64,000 bases of DNA from Xylaria sp. FL1777 (Eukaryota; Ascomycota; Sordariomycetes; Xylariales; Xylariaceae), in the NCBI GenBank assembly GCA_022578965.1, contig MU400607.1, positions 1 to 64,000 of the forward strand, written 5' to 3'. A program made the translations under genes and the position numbers. Below, piece by piece: positions 4,032 through 23,678 of this stretch (positions within the stretch are counted from its first letter, which is position 1; every line of letters begins with the position of its first letter). The notes beneath the pieces were generated by a model. The model was not told the DNA's origin. It did no database searches and saw only the letters and a program-made list of their open reading frames with translations.

Positions 4032-6372
4032 TGATGACCTCATTAATTATTATCGACGAACTAACATGCATGAAACGCCCTACCAAGGTAATCGTTCCCG
4101 CGCCATCGTTACCCCGTTACGTGGCAAGCTTGACTACTAGTTACACGCCGCTCCGGGAGATTGACTGCTCCCACGTGAGGATAGAGCCGTGAAGCGCTTT
4201 GAAGAGAGCACAGGCTTAACATGAACCGTCACAATCTGCGAGTACAACGGGAGGGTTCACAGAACCGGGCCCTTTTCACACACCTATGGGGGTGAACACG
4301 GTGTGTGATTGATTATCCCATGGCTTCAGGAGAGTCAGTTGGTTCCTAGAGCGCGCCCTTGGCTGCACGACCAAAGATTAACTGGTGGATCAAGGATATT
4401 CCAGGAAGGGATGGAAGGGAGGTGGCCTAAGTAGAGGCGGCATCGTTCGGCCGCCGTAGTGCCCCAATGAGCCAGCAAACGCCTTTGTACGATGTGTTCA
4501 ATATACTCCTGCTTCGCCTAACAGTAGACTCTAACAGCGGAGGAACTCCGAACGTTACTAAGAGCTGGGATAGATCTTCGAGTAAAGCCTCAGAACTATT
4601 ATTATAGAACTGAGAACAAAATATCAGACGATGTATCCACGGAACACTCTCCTGCTAACTTAGGAACGGATACCTACGCTTTGGCCTGAGGCTCATCTCG
4701 ACCATCATCAATGTCATGCCACGCTGTTTTCAATATAGTCTGCAACTCTTACGCGCTCGATGAACTAAGGCTTAATGACATGGCCATTGGCACTAGGCGA
4801 CTTGCCACCATCAGTTTTGGCTCAAATGGAATCAGACTCATCAATTTCGGCTAGGCCCATGCAAATAGGCGACTACACTTTAACCCACATTATGTACTTG
4901 TGCAAATGCGTCAGAGTCTGTCTCTATCTTGTTAGGGCCAACACGATTCGTGAGGATACACTTTTCTTGCCACTCCTGAATGTGGTCGTTGTCGAAGAGG
5001 GGCCCAATTTCTCATGCTCCGGTCGCATCTCTGCGGCTTTGCTGGATCGATGCGATCTATTCGAATCAGCAAAGTTTCGACAGAAATACTATGAATGCCA
5101 GCTACAAGCGAGTATATGGCGCTTATAGGAATACTACAGTGATTGTATAAGTGCGCACAAAACCGACGATAGGTATGCTGTAGGCCGCCACCAAACTCCT
5201 AACTCTCATGCCCGAACCTCGATTGGTAGACAATATTCATGGTAAGCCATACTAGTCCCACATCTCGATCTTTTACGGGTTCATACCTGCTTGACTTTGT
5301 TCTGCTGTATGGGTACCTTCTTCAGGCTTCGTTGACTTGGAGATGGCTTACTGGTCTGGTGGCTTGGGCAGCCTCCTGAGCATTGAGATGGCCCCACGGT
5401 GCATCGACACGTTTTACGATAGTGGTCGGGGATGTAACGTGAATATTGGATTTCGACGGTAGCCCATACGTAGTGCTATATCCTAGGGCGACTAATATAG
5501 GGTGCTGTCTTGCGAACACGGAGGTAGTTAGCAATATGCTATACTTCGGAAAATCTATGATCCTCGCCGGTTGCAATGGGTGGCGAAGCCTAAGGAGCCT
5601 GAGATATTTAGGTATAATAGATAAAGACGTGGCAAGTAGTATAGGGACTAAAAACTGCGGGGATTTAGTCGAGGGTGCTCCGTGGTGCCAAACAACTATG
5701 CTTTTCGCCTTGATTCCTCCCGTGATCCTATATTACTCGTCGGCTTACTGCGACCTACACTGAACAGTAATTAACTGTATTAATTCGATGAGAACGACCA
5801 TACTGTCTATTCGACTGAGCTGGCAAAGTTTGTGCCAGTGCTAGCCACGTGGGGATACACATGTCAATATGGTATTATTCCATGTGCCATCATTTAAGCA
5901 TGGGGCGACCAAACGGATTTGAAGGATCTCTACGGGAATAGGTTATCCACTACGGCGACGTGCGTCACGCCTGGAAAGAAAGCCCAGGGCTTCGGGACGA
6001 TGACACTCTACCGGACCCGGGTTGCACATGATATCCGATAGACGTGGACCGACTGTGAAGCAATCTATCGAAGTATGCGACTTCATGAGATCGTCATTAA
6101 ATCTTATGCCCAACTATTACTGTCACACTAAGGCGAAAAATATCAGTTTGGGCGACGAAAGGTTACCTGCATACCTACATCTGCTGTCATTGCCAAGAAT
6201 GATAGCCGCGATTTGCGACAGTGTTGACTGAGGCTGAAATAATAGAAACAAATATCAATTTCGGTACAAGAAGCCGCAGAATTCCATCATGAACAACAAC
6301 GATAAGTTCACGCATCCCTCTGACCTTAACTAAACTATTCACGGACTAAGCCAATCCTACCACCTACCCACC
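4032..6372. other. Gene-free stretch, nothing recognised
   Basis: About 2.3 kb of normal base composition without a recognisable protein, RNA gene or repeat. Several 60-117-codon frames exist (4775-5128, 5322-5576, 5446-5763, 6022-6231), and a 46-codon frame at 4467-4607, but none shows domain content, and several overlap each other on opposite strands. This may be a graveyard of decayed genes or long intergenic DNA. Confidence 0.4.
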
Positions 6373-12341: not shown

Positions 12342-13131
12342 ACAGCTTGTTAGCCCGACTATAGCTTAGCGCTAGTAGCCCTAGGTCGAACATTGATCCG
12401 TATTAAGCTAATGGAGTTATATACTTCCATAGTTCGATAAGCTTTGCTAAATCTTCATTGAGGTTCAACGAACATGCAGTAATCAACCATCATTTTGCCG
12501 CGTTAGTTCCCTTTTACCCTCGCTGTGGTACAAGGCATGGCGCAAACACGGACTTGATGCTCCCGTTCTTGGGTTCCATCCTTTTCTGGGTATGCTTTTG
12601 ACGCATCTAACCCGAGTTAGAGACAGCTCTGGGTCGAGGGCCGTCGCGTTGTCCGTCGTCGCGTTTCCGGTTGCCTCGTTTTGAAATGTCGTAGGTTAGA
12701 AATTGTCATCCCATTTCGCACGCCTCTCGATTGAGGATCTTAGGTAGGATGGCACCGCTAGGGTCCCCTGTTGGAACTAACTACCTGGGCAGTGTGCGGG
12801 GGAAATAGTCCTTCAGCTAAGGAGCACTTGTGGCTTGCCAAGAAAATTTCTCATAGAGGATGCCTTACAAGGCGTTTCGTGTGGCTTACTGCGTAGGTAG
12901 GTATTTGATAATACCTAGGTGTCGTTGAGCAATGCCAGGATCAAGCATAGGGGTAGGTAATAACTATCGTTTGTTGCGCCAAGGGCTCTAACCCGCCTCC
13001 GTAGCTTCGTTTTCGATGTTCTCTATCCCAGAGGAGGTCTTACAACAAGCTCCATAGCTACCGGTACAACGTGCAGATACTCGGCCCAGGTTCAAAGAGG
13101 AACTCGTCCTGAACATTGCACAGTGGACCAT
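12342..13131. other. Intergenic region upstream of HET gene
   Basis: About 790 bp with no recognised gene. Scattered TACCTA/TAGGTA words occur at 12890-12960, as in other intergenic parts of this window. The promoter of the HET gene presumably lies here. Confidence 0.4.
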
Positions 13132-15181
13132 ATGCATCGATTTCGGTACACTCCTCTTCAGCCGGGAAGAAAGATTCGAGTGTTTAAGCTCGCTAGTGGA
13201 AGGGAGAATTGGGCTATTAAGGGGGAACTCATACATGCTGACCTTGACCTTGACCCAGAATATTCGGCCCTGTCATACGTATGGGGGACTGAACTAGGTG
13301 GCACGAAGATCGAATGCAACGGGCACGAAGCAGAAGTCACCAAGAATCTTGCCGAAGCTCTTCGACATCTTCGACATGAGTCGGAGTCGAGATATCTCTG
13401 GATTGATGCCTTGTGTATCAACCAGCAAGATGTAGATGAGAAAGGCCAACAGGTGGCATTAATGAAGGATATCTACGCCTATGCCCGAGAAGTTGTTGTG
13501 TGGCTTGGCCCGGACGAGGAAGACATTGCCGCCGAGTTATTCCCAGCGGTCGAAGATATGGTAACTGTACTGGAAACCTCAGTTGAGGAAGAATTCGACG
13601 GCATGAAAGGGGAGAGGTGGCCCCGACCCCCTAATTTGTTGGGCAAGCTCTTCCATCTATTTAAAAGGGAGTACTTCAGTAGAACATGGGTTATCCAAGA
13701 GGTGGGCCTTACGAATCGACCAGTCGCACATTGCGGAAAATCGGTAGTCAACTTCAACAAACTCGGTCTTCTGGCTATGGCCTTCATCAAGGGTCTCCGG
13801 TCTTCGCTGTCTTCGTTCGGGTATCTGAGAGAATTTAAGCGTGCCGCAAATCTCTACCAGACGTACCTCCCACAGCCCGGATCTGCACGGCTATATGATA
13901 TCATTCATCGATCTCGACTCAATGAGGTGACTGATTCCCGAGATAAAGTGTATGCCTTTATCTCACATCCGAGTGCACGGCAAGATGGAGGCGATTTTCC
14001 ATATGCTGGGAATGGCAGACCGCCTAAGGAGAATTTGACTGACGAAGATATCAAGCTGAGGGCCCTGAGTGTAATATTCGCGCCTACTGGCAACACTTTT
14101 ACATACGCACAGCTTGACCACATCGGGAATCATCCCATGAGACCCGCTTCTCCTGAGGAAGTCATGGCTAGAAGAATGCTCCATAACCCTGGACCCCAAA
14201 TGAAGGTTTCGAGGTATTGGCCCGGAAGATCCTTCATCAAGCCGGACTACAGCCTTTCGGTGGTTGACGTCTACCTTAACTTTACTAGGCAGATGATTAT
14301 GAGAACGGAATCTCTGGAGATCCTCTCTTTTGTTCAGCACAATGCTTCTCTTCCACCCACCGGTCCCGGGTTTCCCTCTTGGGTACCTCGTTGGGATGTT
14401 CCTTCAGACATCTCCATATTTGGTGGGGTGAATTGCGATCACTTTGCGGCAGCGAACAGGCGCCCAATCATCACTCCATCCCAAGATCCCAGCTCCTTGA
14501 CAGTACGGGGGCTCTTTTTTGACCGCATTGCACTCCACACGATCCCATTAACCCGAGGCGACTTCACTGATGAATCGAAAACGAGAATTATGGACCATGT
14601 CAAAAACCTGCCAAGTATCCACCTACCCCGTTCCAGATTACCCCAGAATCTCGGTGCCCGGAGTTGTCATGATGCAAAGCCCAGATCGTATGAAGGCCTA
14701 CCGGCAGACATGGATTGCTGGTAGAACCATTGCCACAAGCGATGCTCCCCGTGATCGTTTCAATCCCGATCTTGATTATGCCGCCCATCAACTAGATTTT
14801 TTCAAACGAAAACAGAATGATCAGCCTTCTACTGATCTATCATACATGTTTAGGATGGCTACGCTTGAAGAGGAAGCAAGAGGCGGAGACGGGGATAGGT
14901 TTGCTGAAGCGGCGGGGAATGCTTCGCATGGTCGATGCTTCTTTATCACCAAAAGCGGCTTCTTTGGACTCGGGCCAGGAATCTTAGAGCAAGGGGACAC
15001 GGTCGTTATCTTGTTGGGGGCCGATGTGCCTTTTATTATTCGTGAAAAGGAGAAATGTGGAGATAATTTCGGGGGCTGGGCTTTGATTGGCGAATGCTAT
15101 GTTCATGGGCTTATGACGGGGGACGCGATTAGAGCTTGGGGTGGTTCCGATGGAGACCTGAAGGATATAACGCTGTGCTAG
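13132..15181 (+). pseudogene. HET-domain protein gene with a frameshift
   Basis: The N-terminal frame starts at ATG 13132 (MHRFRYTPLQPGRKIRVFKL) and holds a complete HET core: YSALSYVWGTE, then SRYLWIDALCINQQDVDEKG, then ARTWVIQE-like FSRTWVIQEVGL. HET domains mediate cell death after fusion of unlike hyphae. The C-terminal half typical of these proteins (KAYRQTWIAGRTI, then GRCFFITKSGFFGLGPGI, then GDTVVILLGADVPFIIRE) continues to 15181, but in the next frame. The first frame stops at 14724 with nonsense residues after about 14600. No intron with usable borders and the right length was found there; a single extra base in the A5 tract at 14602-14606 would explain the shift. It is either a recently broken gene or a sequencing error. 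It ends 62 bp from the convergent stop of the kinase-HET gene. Confidence 0.75.
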
Positions 15182-15243: not shown

Positions 15244-18200
15244 CTAGAAGACTTGAGCTAGCAAACCAGCCCCTTCTAGAGTGATTGAGCTCCCGGGTAA
15301 GGACCCAACCCCTATTCTTTCGTAAATCCCCGCACCCCCTTTTTGAGCAACAACCAGCACGTAATGAATCTGCTCATCATCAATCCTTACTTTCGTTTTC
15401 CTTCTCCCAACTATCACACACTTCACCACTCGATTTTTGGGCGCCTCTCCGCTGTCGTATATGATGTGGGTGTCCAGTGAGGCTGAGAAATCTCTAGCGA
15501 TCACCGTGAGATCGATCCTCTCTTTAGTGCTAGTAGTATACCAAGTCGTGTTGGAGCTATTAATCGAACGCGACGATGAGGTCAAAAACGGCGTCCGAGT
15601 GCTCCATGGCGAGTGAATTTCCTTGTCTTCCCAACTTATCTCGCCAAATGGTAGATCCATGAAAGTGATAGCACCCTCATACGCCATCCAGGACCACGAA
15701 GGCACCTGGTATTTTTGCGACTTGGGAAACTTGATTGGCTTCATACCCGCTGGCGCTGAGGCGACATCACGCTGCCAGAGGAGCCCCCGGCCAAAGTACC
15801 GAGTGAACACGCCGTATCCGCCCTGGGTGTCGAACGCGCGAATCAGTCGTTGCTCTAACCCAGCAATTGCTAGCGGTCTATCGTGGATCCTGGTGAATTG
15901 AAGACTTGAATATTGCTTGTATAGATGCTCGTAAAGGCGAATTCGGCCGCCCTTCGATGAATCAGTGGCTACCTTGGGGAACTTGGGATCGCCGAGTAAA
16001 GCAGCTTGGTTACTAGAGCAAAGACCATTAGCAAGAATATATACTGGATGAGCATATCTCCGATGGGTTGCATTAGACATTGGTAGAATTTGCATTGGTT
16101 TGCTCACTTTCTCATCCTTGTCATCGTCTCACAGCGAACCCCCTCCCCACACTCCCAGTAATTTTGGTTTTCGGCGAAGTAGATTGTTCGTCGCGCTAGG
16201 GCTCTTTCCTGGAAGACCCAGCCCCTTTTATTTAGAGGCCCTTCGATAACGTCTCGCTGGAAATTGTCGATAGACTCGCAGACGAACAATGGAGGGTTTC
16301 CAGATCTTTCCAACCTGACCGCGTTTCGGTCTGGTCTGGGATTGAGAAATCCGCTAGACGCCCCCTTTGCGCGAGTTGCAGCAATTACGCAGTATGCCGT
16401 GGAAAACACCGTCTCCATGTGCATCGCCTCTTCGTCGAAGTCGCCGTCTTCCCCCTGTACAATGCAAAGTGAGTCAATCCAGAGGTATCGCACACCAAGC
16501 TCTCGTGTAACTTTAATAGCATCTTTAAAGGTATTCGGAAGGATATCTATCTGTATTCCAGCTTTGTGATGATTGATGTTCTGCCGCGTAGTGCAGTAAT
16601 GCTCATGCTCTCTTTTATCACCCCATGGATGGGATAAGGCAACGTATCTGAAGTGCTGGACTTGATCCCTCTGGCTCTGCTCAGTTTCGAGAAGATGTAT
16701 TCTGGGCGAATATTTTTCTTCAACGTCGATTAATCTAGTTGGTACCCTACTTAGTGATGCCTCCGCGGACTTGAGGTGACAATCTGGATGGCTATTGTCA
16801 CAGTCTTTAAGCCATTGTCGGAGAACCTCGAAATATATCGGACTCGGCATATCCGGAAGTTTCGGGAACCCTACCGGAATGTTTTGCACTTGAATATCGG
16901 GGCTGATATTGAGGGCTGTAACGAACTTTTAGCACCTACGTTGACCCCTCCCCTATTCAGTGTGTACTCACTCGGTATCCTGTAGAGAGATAAGGTCGGG
17001 TTTCCTCCATTGTGTCCTGCCAGCCCACCCTGAACTCGCCATGTTTCAACAATGCCTGAATTACCAGTGCGAAACATACTAAGCAGTAGTTTGCACAATG
17101 CGCAAAATTGTGCTCTTCGTTCAAGGAAGTCGGTCTCTTCTCTTGTGATCAAGCCTAAACTTCCAAATTCTAGTGTAAGGCAACGTTCGCATGTCGCTGA
17201 CGTGCTTTTTGGAATGATGCTTAAAGCGTTGAATTCCTTGCTTTCGACTATCCGCGAGTAGATTATATCATCATCATAAAATTCCCAACGACTATCCAAC
17301 TAAGTTCAATTAGTCTAGTAAGCGACAGTGAATAAGATTACTTACATTCTAATCGGAACTATAGTTAGTCGTAACATTTTATCGACTGTATATGATCAAT
17401 CTGGATAGTAAGGCTTACCACCTAGTAAACCGATACAGTTAAAAGTTAGTCTATGTTGCGTTACTCGCAGTCACAGTTGGTACTCACATGCTATTAAGTT
17501 AACGTTAGTAAAGGACTTCTCAGAATTTGCTATAAAAAAAACTTACTCTCTACGATCGGTGAACACCCGATGATCGTGATTAGTGACTGACACAATCTAA
17601 AGCTTAGGTCTGGTTACTATAACTTACATACTATCGTCCAAGTCAACCTCCTAATATTTGTAAAGTTGCAAAGTGGATTACTTACAGTCTTTAGTATCGA
17701 ACACGCTACCAGTTAGCTAGCACTCAATACGTTTTGAGAAGAGATCTCTGACATACATTCTTGAATTGATGAAGATTGTCAGTTGTTCGTTTGCTACCGA
17801 GTCTCAAAATCTGCATCGTTACTTACTAATGCAGGTTGAGATGACCCGTTACCCAGCGGGAGATTAACTCCGAGGTGATCTTGAGGCAGTGCGGTCTTCA
17901 GCTTTGGGACAGTTTCATTGTGGGTGCCGAGGAGCGACGGGATTTCAACATGGCTCCTATCGGAACCCGTGAATAAGTAATCATCGTCCTGGTTCGCGGT
18001 TCTCCTAATATTATCAACTTCTCTGTATAGCTCACCAGAAGTGGCGCGGTAACTGGTTTCCTTCGGCCTAGACCTACTCGGAATTGGCACAATGAGGAGT
18101 CTATCTCTCACCAACTCGAGTAACTGGCGAAGCGCAGTATATCCCTGGCATTCCGGGTCCTTTTCTAGCATCTCTCGAATCCAATGTAAAGCGATGTCGC

Positions 18201-20041
18201 TTACAGTAGCAACAAGCTCGTAGTTACCATCGATGAAGTGTCTCCGGGTTGTGAAATAAAGAGTCTGCTGAGCGTGGTCTTTAAAATGCGTATGTGCATG
18301 ATAGAATGTCTTGAGCCCTTTTGTGCCGTAAAGAAGCCATATGATGGACTCCAGAATGATACATCCCATTGACCATACATCGTAACGGCGGGACCTTGGC
18401 TCTTTCATATTAGTAACAGCCTCTGGGGCTTCATAGTGTAGCGTTGAGTGCTTAGTGGATGTGACTTGATGCCGAAACTCCGTGGCGAATTGATGCTGTT
18501 TGGCTAAACCAAGATCGGCTATCTTCAAGGTTCCGAGCCAGGTTGAGTCTTTGAAAATTAAGATGTTCTCAGGTTTGATATCTCCATGACGCCAATGCTT
18601 AGCATCACTGTCTCTATTCTCATTTGGAAGAATGATCATAGGCATGTCATCTATGTCTGATGATACACCGTTACCGGGACCGGTCTTGAAGGAGTGAGAT
18701 CGGGGGGTGATGGTGGCATCGACATCAGATTTCGAGTGTAACGACCGCGGGCCGCTGTTGGGTAAAGCTGAGTTTCTCAGGGACGCTTCTGCAAGTGCTG
18801 TATCAGTTTGGGTGTTGCTGCCGTGTAATTTGCAAAGGGCACCCGCCACGCCACAAATTTGTTCCAAAAACTCTCCGATCCGCTGCTTATTAAGATGAAG
18901 ATGGACATTGCTGGTCCTGTTCCAGAAGCTCCGGAGCGTGCCACCATTGGCCCATTCGAACATGATGTAGTGCGCTTGAACATCTAGTGTTAACACTGGG
19001 TCTGCTTAGATCAAGTATGAAGATTTTGGAAACGAGCTCAACTTCTCGTAAAAAGCTTGAAAACAGGATACGAACGATTACACAGATGATACTGACCTGT
19101 GCCCCACTTGAACGCAGCAATGGGATGAATCAAATGATTATCTTTTAACTCGCTGATCTCCTTCAATGCATTTACTTCAAGCCGCCATGAAGTTTCCACG
19201 TTGTAATCTGCTTCCTCACTTAAAGCGTGCTTGAGCTCCTTGAGAGCGACGTGCACACCGTCCGTGTCATTCTGTGAGATTTCAGTACATATTGATGGAG
19301 AAGGACCATCCAATGTTCGCGATTACATACCGGGTCATATCCAACTTGGTGTGATACATGAAGTTTTGCGTGAAAGACATTGCTAAAGTGACCACTACGT
19401 GGCTTTGGGTCTTTCCAGGTGAAGGGTAGAACTGTCTCCTTTAAAAGTCCATTCTTGAACTCTTGGGGATTATGTTTCTTGAACACAGGCGCAGAGAATA
19501 TCCACTGTTTATTGAGGAAGGTATCAAAGCCCAGCTTGCTCCATTCCTTCATGTGGAATGAATCCAAGGCTGTGTTGTGAGCGCAATCGCCCCCTCTTTT
19601 CTCGGGCACCCGAGGACACTTCTTGCACCTGCATCGCACATAACTATCTGGGTTAAGGCATCTGCCGCGCTTGGTGATGTCCTTGACAGGGAGACACTCA
19701 TCCGTCAACCCATTCTTTTGGAAGCTCCTGGCTACTTCTACTAGCCGAGGTCCCGTGATATCGATAGACAGTAATGCGGCTAGAAATACCTTTATTGCCT
19801 TTGTGTTGATGAAGTTGATCAGATCCTTGGATGCCCCGGGCAACAAGCGGTCAAAGTCTATCTCGTCGACTAGTTTAGGTAATGAGCTTTCTGGTAGGAA
19901 TTTGCCCCCGAAACTACTTTCAACTAGAGCGCGCGCGATTTTGTCTTGAATCTCTCGTGGATAATCCCAGTCGTCGTCAGATGTAAGCCTAGGTAGGCCA
20001 AGTCGACTTATAATCGTCCTAAAAATACTCGTAACAATCAT
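15244..20041 (-). CDS. Kinase-HET fusion protein, 13 predicted exons
   Basis: Exons: 20041-19331, 19271-19097, 19001-17827, seven 3-nt exons in 17759-17346, 17299-16972, 16915-16108 and 16012-15244. They join in one frame of 1328 residues. Residues 1-235 form a helical region shared with the kinase at 21877. The kinase domain follows: VALK lysine about 248, WRHGDIKPEN catalytic loop (Asp about 436), DLG instead of DFG (about 458), YEAPE (about 488), and a 75-residue insert before the catalytic loop. After a linker come LDSRWEFYDDD and a CERC/CALC region, then a HET domain from about 893 (RYVALSHPWGD, RYLWIDSLCIVQ, KRGWVFQERALARRTIYF). A regulated cell-death or allorecognition role is inferred from HET. 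The HET half has no in-frame ATG of its own. Alternatively these are two genes, with the kinase stopping at 17794. Confidence 0.7.
17300..17826 (-). other. Run of eight tandem introns with 3-nt exons between them
   Basis: Read on the minus strand, introns lie at 17826-17760, 17756-17689, 17685-17631, 17627-17550, 17546-17491, 17487-17422, 17418-17349 and 17345-17300 (lengths 67, 68, 55, 78, 56, 66, 70, 46). Six donors are GTAAGT/GTAAGC, one GTATGT and one GTGAGT. Every acceptor is AAG or TAG, and most have CTAAC, CTAAT or CTGAC about 9-25 nt upstream. Between successive introns stand exactly three bases: AAT, ACT, TAT, AGA, CAT, GTG, AAT. All are phase 0 and none is a stop. The second intron could instead end at 17706, leaving a 20-nt exon, which would break the frame. 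Removing the whole 527-bp stretch as one long intron would also keep the frame. The usual kinase stop (17794-17796) falls inside the first intron. Confidence 0.7.
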
Positions 20042-21876
20042 TGGTGCGGACCCTCCAGCCAGACAAGGGTATATGAGAGGTACGCAGTAAGAAGGGGCTG
20101 TAGAGCTAGATTGAAAATTGCACAATAATCGAGGCTGATTCCAATGAATGCTGTGTCGTATCCCTCGTCCTTAAAGGTGTAGAGGTTGTGACGTTACTAG
20201 AATCTGCAAATGTTGTAGGCTGCCCCGCGTGCGGATTGCCCTCCGCTTTTTTCTATACATTACCTGGGCATGATTTATTGGGCATATACAGCATGGTAAA
20301 ATACACTATGTACCTAAATACCCAATTGGTACCGACTCTTCACAGCTTGACATATTGGATTTGGGAGGTGATACTACTTTGGTAGCATCAGTGGCCTTGT
20401 CATTGGTACCTGACCGCGCTGAGCAGCATATTGACGTGCAGAGAGCCAAGCCCCTAGGACCCAAGCGTGACGAGATATGGTAGATATGCAACATTCTAAT
20501 AGTTATCTAGGTAGTGAGCAAGAATGGGGTGAGATACAACGCCTCGAACGAGATGATTGGCTCCACAGAGCCGCAAGTTCGAGGTTGTGCTTCCTGATGA
20601 CGAAATCAGGCACGATCCCATTGGCATTCCCGATAGAAGACTCCAATCAGTGGCATTTATTAGTGACTCATGGGCGAACTGGGCTAGTCTAGGCTCTGGG
20701 TATGCGTTGTCTGGACATACGCGGGATTTTTCGGGTAACTATATGCATATATCCAATAAGCTGCTGGCTGTCACCGAAATCTGAGAAGAGATTCGTGATG
20801 TATACTCAAGGAACCAGATTGGTAATTGGTTGTGGTTTGAACGTGGCCAGGTGCAAGCGTGTAGTCCGACTGGTGCCAATGAAACAGACTACATATTACT
20901 CAGGATTGGCTGCCATTGATAAATTATGTCTACATGTACGTTCTTGTTCGTTACTCTACCTATCTAGGTCGTAACAGCTACTATTGCTACTGAGGCCGCC
21001 ACCGAGCAAAGGCAGGGGTTGCTGAGCATTGGGTGTCTACGCTGGGCTCGAAGCACAAGAACTAGGCAACGAGCAAGGATGCCATTTGAAACCACCATGG
21101 CAGCAAGTGCAGCAAACCCTGAAATTCATCACATCGTCCAAAAGAAGATGCTTCCCTTGAACTGTTACTAGCATGTCCTTCATCCCTACTTAAGTCAGCC
21201 AGCCAGCTCACAGTTCGCGGGGGAAGACGATTCCACCCCCCACCCTGCAACCATTATGCTATATATGCGGGAGGGGTATTCTGCTCAGCCATGGTGCAAC
21301 CCTCCGGATTGGCCGACATGGGCCTGAAGTTGGAGATCCGAAGTGCGGAGCTACGCAGCAGAGCGTCACACTCTCCTGGCTTACTGCAGTATCAGTAGAG
21401 TTGGGTGTCCCAATTAGTCTCCAGCCTTAGCCATGGCATGTCTTGCATATTATTGCATAATCCGACGATCAAAGGTGGGCGATTTTGCTGGCTAACCTGG
21501 TGTGACCGGTGCGTCATGTATTAAACTGGCGTGGTGCCCAAAGAAGTGGCTGCGATGGTGCTGACCACATTCGACTGGGGTACTAGTATACTACACACCA
21601 GGACGCCTACATGTCACCAATCACCCGGATTAAGGCAGAACACCAAGGCAACCATCATGAACACTGCCAGTTTGCCCGGCGCGAGCGTGATGGCGTTAAT
21701 ATTATGTGGTCCGCGCCCGCCAATTGTAGGACTAACGTGGCCTACTATTACTAGTATAAAAGACATATCGCGAACCCCTCACACTCAGGGTAGCTAATGT
21801 TGAATCCACCTAACACTTCCTCACCAGCCTAGAGAATTTTCTTCTGTGGGATAAGTTTATCCTATAGAATACAATA
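20042..21876. other. Divergent intergenic region between the two kinase genes
   Basis: 1.8 kb between the divergent starts of the kinase-HET gene (20041) and the second kinase (21877). Overlapping frames of 62-91 codons on both strands carry no recognised motif. It presumably contains both promoters. Confidence 0.45.
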
Positions 21877-23678
21877 ATGTCATCCCTACAGAACCCAGTG
21901 ATGCCATCCTTATCTCGACAGTCATCAGGGCACTCGTCCCAATACTCGGATTCCCTCAGCGACCTATCTCGACAATCTTCAGGGCAGTCATCTCAGCATT
22001 CAACCCCATCCAGCTATAACTCGAACGGACAGGGCTTGTATCATAAACTGAGCTCAAGAATATATGGGAATGATGAGGAGAAGGAACCCCAGGCCCTTTC
22101 TCGTGTCTCATTCTTCTCATTCTTACCCATAGACGCTATAGATGAGGTCATCACTATAGATGTTGTCAAAGCCCAATTGCCATATATCTTTGATTATACC
22201 AAAGCTAAATTGACCTTGGCCGATCTTATCAAAGCTCAAATACCCTGGCCCTTTTCCTACAACATTCCTCGTTTCTCTGAAGTAGTCGAACAATCGAAAA
22301 AGATACTCGCGATTCTTGGACTCTGTGAGGCTGAAAAGTATTTCTGGTACCTATTAAGTGAGGGTCTCACAGACGAGCACCTCCCACTTGCAAGAATAAC
22401 ATGTGACAAATGCTCCAACACCTTGATTTCTTCCCGGGGCACAAAGGTCACAACGTTCTCGAACAAGGGAGGTAATATTGTCGTTGAAAACTTCCTCAAA
22501 AAACAATGGCAGGTCCTTGCCCCGGTATTTACTACGCTAGGTGAAGACATCAAGATAGAGGGCAATGCTGCTTTACCATTCTATGATGTTAAGATGATAT
22601 CGTTCCTCAATGACAGAAGCACTGTTTATAGAGGCACGCTTCACGCAGCCCATATAGTAAGTACTCCATCTACATACCTCTTTGGGTCTAGTTGTTTATC
22701 AAACGCTAACTAGAAAATTAGATGCCTAAACCTAAGGCCGATGTCAAAATTGCCATTAAAGACTATACGCATCAAGATGATTTCGATAAGGAGAAAGACA
22801 ACTTATTGAAAATCCAAAACCTCAATAACCCACATCTGATCCGGCACATCGCTACTATTCAACAAGGCAATCTTTTCTATGTCATCTTCCCTTGGGCTAA
22901 TGGAGGCAATCTTTCTGAATTCTGGATGCGTCCTCATGCTTCGCAGGCACGGAGCCCCAAGCTTTTCATGTGGTGCTTTCAGCAGATGCTTGGCATGGTC
23001 GATGCTCTGTTCGTTTTACATGATATGAACTATCGACACGGCGATCTAAAACCCGAGAATATTCTCCACTTCAAAGGTTCATCCAACTCTGACGCTCGGT
23101 ATGGTAAATACGGGAGCTTGGTTATTGCGGATGTTGGCGTGTCCAAAGTCCACATCGAAGCGACGGAATCACGAAAGAAAGGGACAACTACAAAGGCCAC
23201 CACGCCATGCTACGAGGCACCAGAAGCGGAGATAGACGACGGAAAGCCGAGAGGAAGAAGATACGATATGTGGTCGGTTGGTTGCATCTTCATGGAGTTT
23301 GCCATCTGGCTGTTGTACGGCTACGAGGCGATCAACGGCTTTAAAGAGCTGCGTAGAGCGAACGACGACCCATTTCCTCAAAAGGCAGCTTACTACAGAC
23401 GCACCGGGAAGAATACAGCAGAAATCCACCCAATTGCGTCCGACGGATTGAGCGCGCTCAAGAATGACCCTCGATGTGCCGAAGGCACTGCACTGGCAGA
23501 TCTCGTCAGTCTGATTGCAGAAGATCTTATCGTAATTGACCCAAAGAAACGTGCAAATGCAAAAGAATTAAAAGACAAGCTCAGAGAAATCCTTCGGAAA
23601 GCCGAGAAAGACCCTGGTTACTTGATGAGAAGTGTCGGTCCGCCTCCCAGAATTCCCCATCCTTTCACACCAGGGTAA
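21877..23678 (+). CDS. Fungal kinase-like protein, paralogue of the kinase-HET N-terminus
   Basis: Exons 21877-22656 and 22722-23678 (65-bp intron, GTAAGT, GCTAAC branch, TTAG) give 578 residues. Residues 1-50 are Ser/Gln-rich with an 18-residue unit repeated twice (LSRQSSG[HQ]SSQ, 54 bp apart at DNA level). About 75-250 is the helical domain shared with the kinase-HET protein: GLTDEHLPL matches GLTDECLPV there, and FLKKQWQVLAPVF matches FLNKQWIFSAPVF. The kinase part keeps an IAIK lysine (about 273), YRHGDLKPEN (Asp about 368), and YEAPE (about 427). DVG replaces DFG (about 397), and the glycine-rich loop is reduced to DRSTVYRGTLH. Activity may therefore be altered. It ends after the kinase domain, with no HET part. 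The two genes are head to head, so an inverted duplication is likely. Confidence 0.8.

What the first reader, a model, noticed from the sequence alone, without database searches (positions are those of the whole stretch)
17300..17826. Eight consecutive introns separated by seven exons of exactly 3 nt
Seen: on the minus strand, each acceptor (AAG/TAG) is followed by three bases and then a new canonical donor, seven times in a row. Intron lengths are 46-78 bp and most have good branch sites. All micro-exons are phase 0, none is a stop, and together they connect a kinase frame to a HET frame that lacks its own start. Known: fungal genes can carry twin introns (stwintrons) and some lineages multiply introns through introner elements. 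I know of no described run of eight introns with constant 3-nt spacing. Inference: repeated intron gain next to an existing splice site, or stepwise (recursive) removal of one composite 527-bp intron. Exons of 3 nt are hard to define for a spliceosome, so the order of removal would be informative.
Basis: partly seen in the sequence, partly recalled or inferred. Interest (0 to 1): 0.9.

Follow-up and report, generated by a model that had tools for sequence, protein, structure and literature searches.

The report
Eight introns with single-codon exons
In a fungal gene that joins a protein kinase to a cell-death (HET) domain, the connecting stretch is chopped into eight short introns separated by exons of only three bases, and two distantly related copies of the gene in the same genome keep the same odd design, which suggests it is real and maintained.

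Summary
Confirmed at the stated coordinates. On the minus strand, 17826-17300 holds eight intron-like units (46-78 nt) with exactly 3 nt between each acceptor and the next donor, joining a kinase frame to a HET frame without a stop. The decisive new evidence is in the same genome: two paralogous kinase-HET genes (kinase 38-40%, HET 49-52% identical) carry the same kind of array at the same place: 8 introns with micro-exons of 6,3,6,3,3,3,3 nt, and 5 introns with 3,3,3,3 nt. A search blind to reading frame found 18 of 18 micro-exons to be multiples of three. A branch site precedes 20 of 21 acceptors (background 24%), and 16 of 18 internal donors have AG exactly 3 nt upstream (background 6%). 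No shuffle reached eight units, and no other regular run appears in 303 kb examined. Intron bodies share no convincing similarity. Best reading: one gene whose interdomain spacer is removed intron by intron, leaving a 4-9 residue linker; retention of any single intron truncates before HET. Splicing is untested (no RNA), and other species could not be searched. New variant of a known kind.

The parts
17827..20041 (-). Kinase half of the gene: exons 20041-19331, 19271-19097, 19001-17827 (introns 19330-19272 and 19096-19002)
   Evidence: open frame and canonical introns; PF00069 match
17760..17826 (-). array intron 1, 67 nt, GTAAGT..CTGAC..AAG; holds the kinase frame's stop ending at 17794
17757..17759 (-). 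micro-exon 1, AAT (N)
17689..17756 (-). array intron 2, 68 nt, GTATGT..CTAAC..AAG
17686..17688 (-). micro-exon 2, ACT (T)
17631..17685 (-). array intron 3, 55 nt, GTAAGT..TTGAC..TAG
17628..17630 (-). micro-exon 3, TAT (Y)
17550..17627 (-). array intron 4, 78 nt, GTAAGT..CTAAT..TAG
17547..17549 (-). micro-exon 4, AGA (R); the fourth micro-exon of the C162 paralogue is also AGA
17491..17546 (-). array intron 5, 56 nt, GTAAGT..CTAAC..TAG
17488..17490 (-). micro-exon 5, CAT (H)
17422..17487 (-). array intron 6, 66 nt, GTGAGT..CTAAC..TAG
17419..17421 (-). micro-exon 6, GTG (V)
17349..17418 (-). array intron 7, 70 nt, GTAAGC..CTAAC..TAG
17346..17348 (-). micro-exon 7, AAT (N)
17300..17345 (-). array intron 8, 46 nt, GTAAGT..CTAAT..TAG
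15244..17299 (-). HET half of the gene: exons 17299-16972, 16915-16108, 16012-15244; no in-frame ATG in the first 74 residues
   Evidence: similar starts LDSRWE / LNDDWD / LDDIWE in the three paralogues

Best explanation
One gene encodes a kinase-HET fusion protein. The spacer between its halves is a tandem array of short canonical spliceosomal introns separated by single-codon, phase-0 exons. Each intron carries its own donor, branch site and acceptor and is removed by intron definition, one at a time around each micro-exon, because a 3-nt exon cannot be occupied from both sides at once. All micro-exons enter the mRNA and give a short linker (7, 9 and 4 residues in the three paralogues). The array most likely persists because it cuts a 0.3-0.6 kb non-coding spacer, probably left by the kinase-HET fusion, into introns of the size this spliceosome handles, at the lowest coding cost that keeps frame (one codon per cut). 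A by-product is a built-in brake: a full-length product carrying the death-effector domain needs every intron removed, and retention of any single one stops translation before the HET domain. SHOWN: anatomy, frame, presence in three paralogues, statistics. INFERRED: that splicing occurs, its order, the origin, and the brake.
For: A frame-blind chain search returns the array in three genes, 18 of 18 micro-exons multiples of 3 (16 of 3 nt, 2 of 6 nt) (at one third each, (1/3)^18 = 2.6e-9). Branch site YTRAY in 20 of 21 introns against 23.7% of 5187 background AG sites; AG exactly 3 nt upstream in 16 of 18 internal donors against 5.9% of 1750 background donors. Runs of 4 or more AG-N(k)-donor units occur, for k=0-12, only at k=3 and only in these three linkers. 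The kinase donor and the HET acceptor are phase 0 in all three (coordinates). The HET exon start is conserved at or just after the last acceptor. The C162 and C89 HET exons are the two closest matches of the window's HET exon in the genome, 52% and 49%, the next in rank 35%, yet intron bodies are dissimilar, so splice signals and frame were kept while the rest randomised. Retaining any one of 21 introns gives a stop, inside the intron in 17 and further downstream in 4. HET over-expression kills (PMC2988816, passage).
Against: No RNA evidence. An ATG open and in frame to an array acceptor exists in each gene (intron 1, intron 1, intron 3), so a HET-only transcript is possible. In C162 the first donor is weak (GTAGGC), two micro-exons are 6 nt, and the frame-blind search preferred a last acceptor (6191) that leads to a stop; 6241 was chosen for frame. 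In C89 two donors are GTTAGT, and 1 of 2000 shuffles of its shorter linker also reaches five units. One of 66 within-gene intron pairs scored z 3.48. The 'brake' and 'cutting a long intron' roles are untested ideas.
Confidence: 0.72

Rival explanations
1. One composite intron: exon 17827 is usually joined straight to 17299 and the internal sites serve only as relay points (or are skipped), so few or no micro-exon codons reach the mRNA. Skipping any subset keeps frame, so the linker length would vary.
For: All 18 micro-exons are multiples of 3 and lie in phase 0, so every skipping pattern is in frame. Stepwise removal of long introns is known in Drosophila (PMC8605326, abstract; reviewed in PMC13149111, passages).
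Against: Pure relay sites would have no need to be multiples of three; 18 of 18 are. Zero-length relay sites (AG directly before GT) are absent, 0 of 18. Intron definition (recalled) favours the nearest pair, on average 65 nt apart, over 294-603 nt (lengths).
Confidence: 0.13
2. Micro-exon-gene logic: regulated inclusion or skipping of the single codons produces many linker variants (up to 128 for seven exons), as a source of protein diversity in a non-self recognition gene.
For: Symmetrical tiny exons in a row, frame-neutral in any combination; [quoted passage not shown]
Against: Differences of 0-7 linker residues are small; by eye the codons are not conserved between paralogues apart from one shared AGA; the splice signals are good (19 of 21 donors match GTRNGY, 10 of 21 are GTAAGT), which argues for constitutive use.
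Confidence: 0.1
3. Two genes: the kinase ends at its own stop (17794) and a separate HET transcript starts inside the array, so the array is the 5' part of a HET-only gene.
For: Each gene has an ATG open and in frame to an array acceptor: C102 intron 1 (19 codons), C162 intron 1 (9 codons), C89 intron 3 (8 codons).
Against: Three such ATGs among 21 introns is about what chance gives (my estimate, not simulated), and they are not all in the same intron. In C162 the kinase stop and the ATG lie about 20 nt apart and in C102 the ATG lies before the kinase stop, leaving no room for a terminator and promoter. Kinase and HET stay neighbours, in phase, in all three paralogues. The micro-exons remain necessary in this model too.
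Confidence: 0.1
4. Chance arrangement of splice-like words in an AT-rich spacer, or a decayed gene.
For: AT-rich sequence produces many donor-like and AG words; besides the three arrays, 5 chains of 4-5 units with irregular exons occur in 303,001 bases, and 1 of 2000 shuffles of the C89 linker reaches its five units.
Against: 0 of 2000 shuffles reach 8 in C102 or in C162; three loci agree; the kinase and HET exons examined are open.
Confidence: 0.02

Closest known systems
Isolated 3-nt and smaller exons (Dactylellina haptotyla lipS; Drosophila homothorax; human RPS24; Fusarium CYP621A 1-nt exon)
   Same: Exons of 1-3 nt between normal introns can be spliced; the Fusarium 1-nt exon has read support (PMC12940212, part 1 of 3 of the text). 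D. haptotyla lipS genes include two exons of 3 nt (PMC5639578, passage); Drosophila hth has a 3-nt exon (PMC7392893, passages); RPS24 has three micro-exons (3, 18, 22 bp) between two exons (PMC11162997, passages).
   Different: Those are one to three tiny exons per gene. Here seven in a row, all single-codon, and the design is shared by three diverged paralogues.
Spliceosomal twin introns (stwintrons), strict and sensu lato
   Same: Fungal complex intervening sequences of several short U2 introns removed in consecutive steps; Lipomyces sensu lato cases have neighbouring intact donors (PMC7138796, section 6 part 1 of 2 and section 7).
   Different: A stwintron has an internal intron nested in an external one, strictly inside a splice element. 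Here introns follow each other with one or two codons between and no element is interrupted.
Recursive splicing with ratchet points / RS-exons
   Same: A long spacer is divided by internal acceptor-donor pairs.
   Different: Zero-nucleotide recursive sites leave 0 nt and sit in introns typically of tens to hundreds of kilobases (PMC13149111, passages). Here 0.5 kb is divided eight ways and each site leaves one codon.
Schistosome micro-exon genes (MEGs)
   Same: Very small symmetrical exons, so combinations stay in frame (PMC4350168, passages).
   Different: In MEGs most of the coding region consists of such exons; here they form only a short linker in a kinase-HET protein. No transcript variants have been shown here.
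Fungal micro-exon switch (Trichoderma Xlr2, 20 nt)
   Same: Inclusion of a micro-exon in a filamentous fungus decides whether the product carries an N-terminal domain (PMC11121469, passages).
   Different: Single 20-nt exon, not a multiple of three, regulated by glucose; no array.

Membership tests
Spliceosomal (U2-type) introns | GT donor near GTRNGY, branch site YTRAY before an AG acceptor, fungal length | tested here: met
   19 of 21 array donors match GTRNGY, the other 2 are GTTAGT; lengths 46-92 nt; YTRAY in 20 of 21
Spliceosomal (U2-type) introns | excision seen in RNA | not testable with these tools
   no transcript data in the collections on hand
Stwintron (strict) | internal intron interrupts the donor, branch site or acceptor of an external intron | tested here: not met
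   each internal donor hexamer is intact and lies 3 or 6 nt after an AG; interruption of a branch site or acceptor was not searched for separately
Recursive splicing ratchet point | AG directly followed by GT (0-nt exon), donor regenerated at the junction | tested here: not met
   0 of 18 internal donors have AG directly before GT
Micro-exon gene (MEG-like) | run of tiny symmetrical exons | tested here: met
   18 of 18 multiples of three, phase 0
Micro-exon gene (MEG-like) | alternative inclusion producing protein variants | not testable with these tools
   needs RNA
Introner / repeated intron copies | introns share sequence | tested here: not met
   z-scores of intron bodies: within genes mean 0.38, 0.52 and 0.0 (66 pairs, highest 3.48, in C162), between genes 144 pairs, highest 2.7; repeat search shows only short matches around the splice sites and no tandem array is listed at 17300-17826
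Kinase-HET fusion protein | PF00069 and PF06985 in one open frame after splicing | tested here: met
   for the window's gene, under the proposed splicing; for L025 and L026 both families are found in the separate exons, the full frames were not joined

The most novel reading that the evidence does not exclude
A conserved 'single-codon exon array' is a splicing gate on a death effector: a row of minimal, frame-neutral exons forces many ordered splicing steps, so the HET domain is made only when splicing runs to completion, and the default product of incomplete splicing is a truncated kinase. Coding ratchet points of this kind would be an unrecognised way for intron-defining organisms to divide a long intron.
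Probability: 0.2. Interest if true: 0.9.

Novelty: new variant of a known kind. Interest (0 to 1): 0.76.

Why it matters
Exons of 3 nt are near the limit of what a spliceosome can define; seven in a row, kept in kind by paralogues whose intron bodies share no convincing similarity, make the order and mechanism of their removal directly testable in a small gene segment. It also bears on how introns are gained or divided (no copying is visible here, only signals and frame are kept), and such exons are easily missed by gene predictors, so other such arrays may be hidden as 'intergenic' spacers between domains of fungal recognition genes.

Tried and rejected
Copying or tandem duplication of units: repeat search, tandem-repeat search (150 of 492 rows shown, none at 17300-17826) and intron comparisons gave nothing convincing. 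Stable RNA structure bringing the outer sites together: z-score 0.22, 55 of 100 shuffles fold at least as well. Training a species splice-site model: only 8, then 17 introns were recovered, with 1 to 6 hits in each of five decoy sets, so it was used only for a rough comparison. In that comparison the acceptors differ, CAG 1 of 21 in the arrays against 10 of 17; the 17 were picked by a CAG/TAG rule, so AAG was excluded there by design. Homologues elsewhere: the protein database is switched off, the query was not sent. Organism name: not determined; 135 HET-domain matches point to a filamentous ascomycete (recalled link).

Rows dropped: searches left out loci L001-L009 and L023, which repeat or overlap sequence held under other ids; one search left out L001, L002, L004, L023 (so its list shows the C162 and C89 runs twice). 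L044-L047 were fetched later and scanned together with four kinase loci (L024, L027, L028, L029) and the window. Kinase-HET neighbours were found by reading two coordinate lists by eye; those lists are lower bounds (150 of 156 and 123 of 243 candidates scored), and two further same-strand pairs 4-5 kb apart (contigs C3 and C41) were not examined.

Full report
OBSERVATION. The minus strand between 17826 and 17300 was read directly. Donors and acceptors listed by script give eight introns of 67, 68, 55, 78, 56, 66, 70 and 46 nt and seven exons of 3 nt: AAT ACT TAT AGA CAT GTG AAT. With four ordinary introns of the gene (19330-19272, 19096-19002, 16971-16916, 16107-16013) the exons join into a 3987-base frame without internal stop, from ATG 20041 to 15244, 1328 residues with a protein kinase match at 433-579 and a HET match at 894-1040.

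CHANCE. A chain finder was written that scores donor, branch site and acceptor, allows introns of 40-110 nt and exons of 1-12 nt, and knows nothing of reading frame. On the kinase-to-HET stretch it returns exactly the eight introns. On 2000 dinucleotide shuffles of the C102 stretch it never reaches eight; the best is five, in 2 of 2000. For C162 the best of 2000 is three (observed eight); for the shorter C89 linker 1 of 2000 reaches the observed five. On both strands of 303,001 fetched bases it finds chains of eight only here and at C162; besides the three arrays there are 5 chains of four or five, with irregular exons such as 7, 11, 7, 9. A simpler scan for AG-N(k)-donor runs with k from 0 to 12 finds runs of four or more only at k=3 and only in the three kinase-HET linkers.

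PARALOGUES. Searching the own genome (58.7 Mb, 588 contigs) with the kinase exon gave 21 matches and with the HET family 135. Read by eye from the two lists, a kinase followed by HET on the same strand within 2 kb occurs at three places: the window (contig C102), C162 (locus L025) and C89 (locus L026) (lower bounds). The C162 and C89 HET exons are the two best matches of the window's HET exon, 52% and 49% identity, the next in rank (C10) 35%; the kinase exons match at 38% (C162) and 40% (C89). Between kinase and HET both paralogues have an array of the same kind. C162: eight introns of 55, 60, 68, 80, 64, 77, 80, 92 nt with micro-exons TACCTT GAT TACACT AGA TTC ACG CCG. C89: five introns of 55, 67, 57, 50, 53 nt with TAC AAT GCG TTT. 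In C162 the frame-blind search ended at acceptor 6191, which leads to a stop; the acceptor at 6241 keeps frame and starts the conserved HET exon, and is the one counted here. All 18 micro-exons are multiples of three. The kinase donor is phase 0 and the HET exon starts in phase 0 in all three (from the coordinates).

SIGNALS. Across the 21 array introns a branch site YTRAY lies in the expected place in 20, against 23.7% of 5187 background AG sites of similar composition; RCTRAY in 14 against 4.8%. The 18 internal donors have AG exactly 3 nt upstream in 16 and 6 nt upstream in 2; for 1750 background donors each distance from 0 to 12 holds AG in 5-9%. The chain finder asked for a modest branch score, so the branch comparison is slightly favourable to the arrays. 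Donors are GTAAGT 10, GTGAGT 4, GTAAGC 3, GTTAGT 2, GTATGT 1, GTAGGC 1; acceptors TAG 16, AAG 4, CAG 1. No micro-exon ends in AG (0 of 18), so no acceptor is doubled at the donor.

ONE GENE. The HET exon begins at the last acceptor with LDSRWE, LNDDWD or (EPTK)LDDIWE, followed by two shared CxxC motifs, and a stop lies immediately upstream in that frame in all three (0 open codons). The first methionine in that exon is residue 75, residue 109, or absent. An upstream start is therefore needed. A start inside the array is possible (one open in-frame ATG in intron 1 of C102, intron 1 of C162, intron 3 of C89), but this is about as frequent as chance (my estimate). The HET relatives ranked 4 to 7 (C10, C11, C441, C15; fetched, frames) and four other kinase relatives have no such array: longest chains 1-4 units with irregular exons.

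EVOLUTION. Intron bodies show no convincing similarity: 144 between-gene pairs with highest z 2.7, 66 within-gene pairs with highest z 3.48 and means near 0. From the protein divergence the paralogues look old (inference). What stayed is the set of splice signals, the exon length of one or two codons, and the frame; the number of introns differs (8, 8, 5). This is what selection on splicing and on frame would leave. It does not show copying as the source.

MECHANISM. Shown by sequence: each unit has the signals for its own removal. Inferred: removal by intron definition, one after another, because a 3-nt exon cannot carry factors for both neighbours at once (recalled knowledge of spliceosome footprints). 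Inferred: the mRNA carries the micro-exon codons, since translation best explains 18 of 18 multiples of three. Inferred: the array divides a spacer of 527, 603 or 294 nt, left by fusion of a kinase gene with a HET gene, into introns of ordinary size at the price of one codon per cut. Consequence shown: retaining any one of the 21 introns brings a stop, within the intron in 17 and further downstream in 4; for C89 introns 4 and 5 that stop comes at codon 98, inside the first HET-side exon and before the PF06985 match, which lies in the next exon. HET domains are described as death effectors whose over-expression kills whatever the background (PMC2988816, passage), so a built-in limit on full-length product is plausible but untested.

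COMPARISON. Tiny exons are known: one nucleotide in Fusarium CYP621A with read support (PMC12940212, part 1 of 3 read), two exons of 3 nt in D. haptotyla lipS (PMC5639578, passage), a 3-nt exon in Drosophila hth (PMC7392893, passages), three micro-exons between two exons in human RPS24 (PMC11162997, passages), and symmetrical micro-exons in schistosome MEGs (PMC4350168, passages). Fungal complex introns are known as stwintrons (PMC7138796, section 6 part 1 and section 7; PMC9024468, passages), but here no donor is interrupted. Recursive splicing uses zero-length sites (PMC13149111, passages), absent here. In ten searches of open-access full text I saw no run of single-codon exons of this kind; I judged by titles and the starts of abstracts of the rows listed (for example 15 of 113 and 15 of 1,238), and subscription papers are not covered. 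I file it as a new variant of a known kind.

LIMITS. No RNA, no other species, and only 303 kb of 58.7 Mb (0.5%) examined, the targeted loci included. The functional reading is therefore weaker than the structural one.

Noticed in passing
L025 5639-6241 and L026 5448-5741: The paralogous arrays; C162 has two 6-nt micro-exons (TACCTT, TACACT) and shares AGA as fourth micro-exon with the window's gene.
   Followed up: yes
window 12964-15181 (+): HET-type frames (HET match 13261-13701) on the opposite strand that run up to about 60 bp from the end of the kinase-HET gene at 15244; probably a convergent HET gene.
   Followed up: no
window 21868-23576 (+): A second kinase of the same kind (43% identical over query residues 135-317) in the same window; no micro-exon array on that strand (longest chain 2) and no HET match listed downstream of it.
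   Followed up: partly
window 24001-60000: About 36 kb of extremely low G+C (11-17% from 26001 on) with GC-skew sign changes near 36-38 kb and 52 kb, between ordinary sequence; looks like RIP-degraded repeats (recalled idea).
   Followed up: no
array acceptors in window, L025, L026: Acceptors are TAG in 16 of 21 and CAG in 1 of 21, and no micro-exon ends in AG, as if alternative acceptors next to the donor were avoided.
   Followed up: partly
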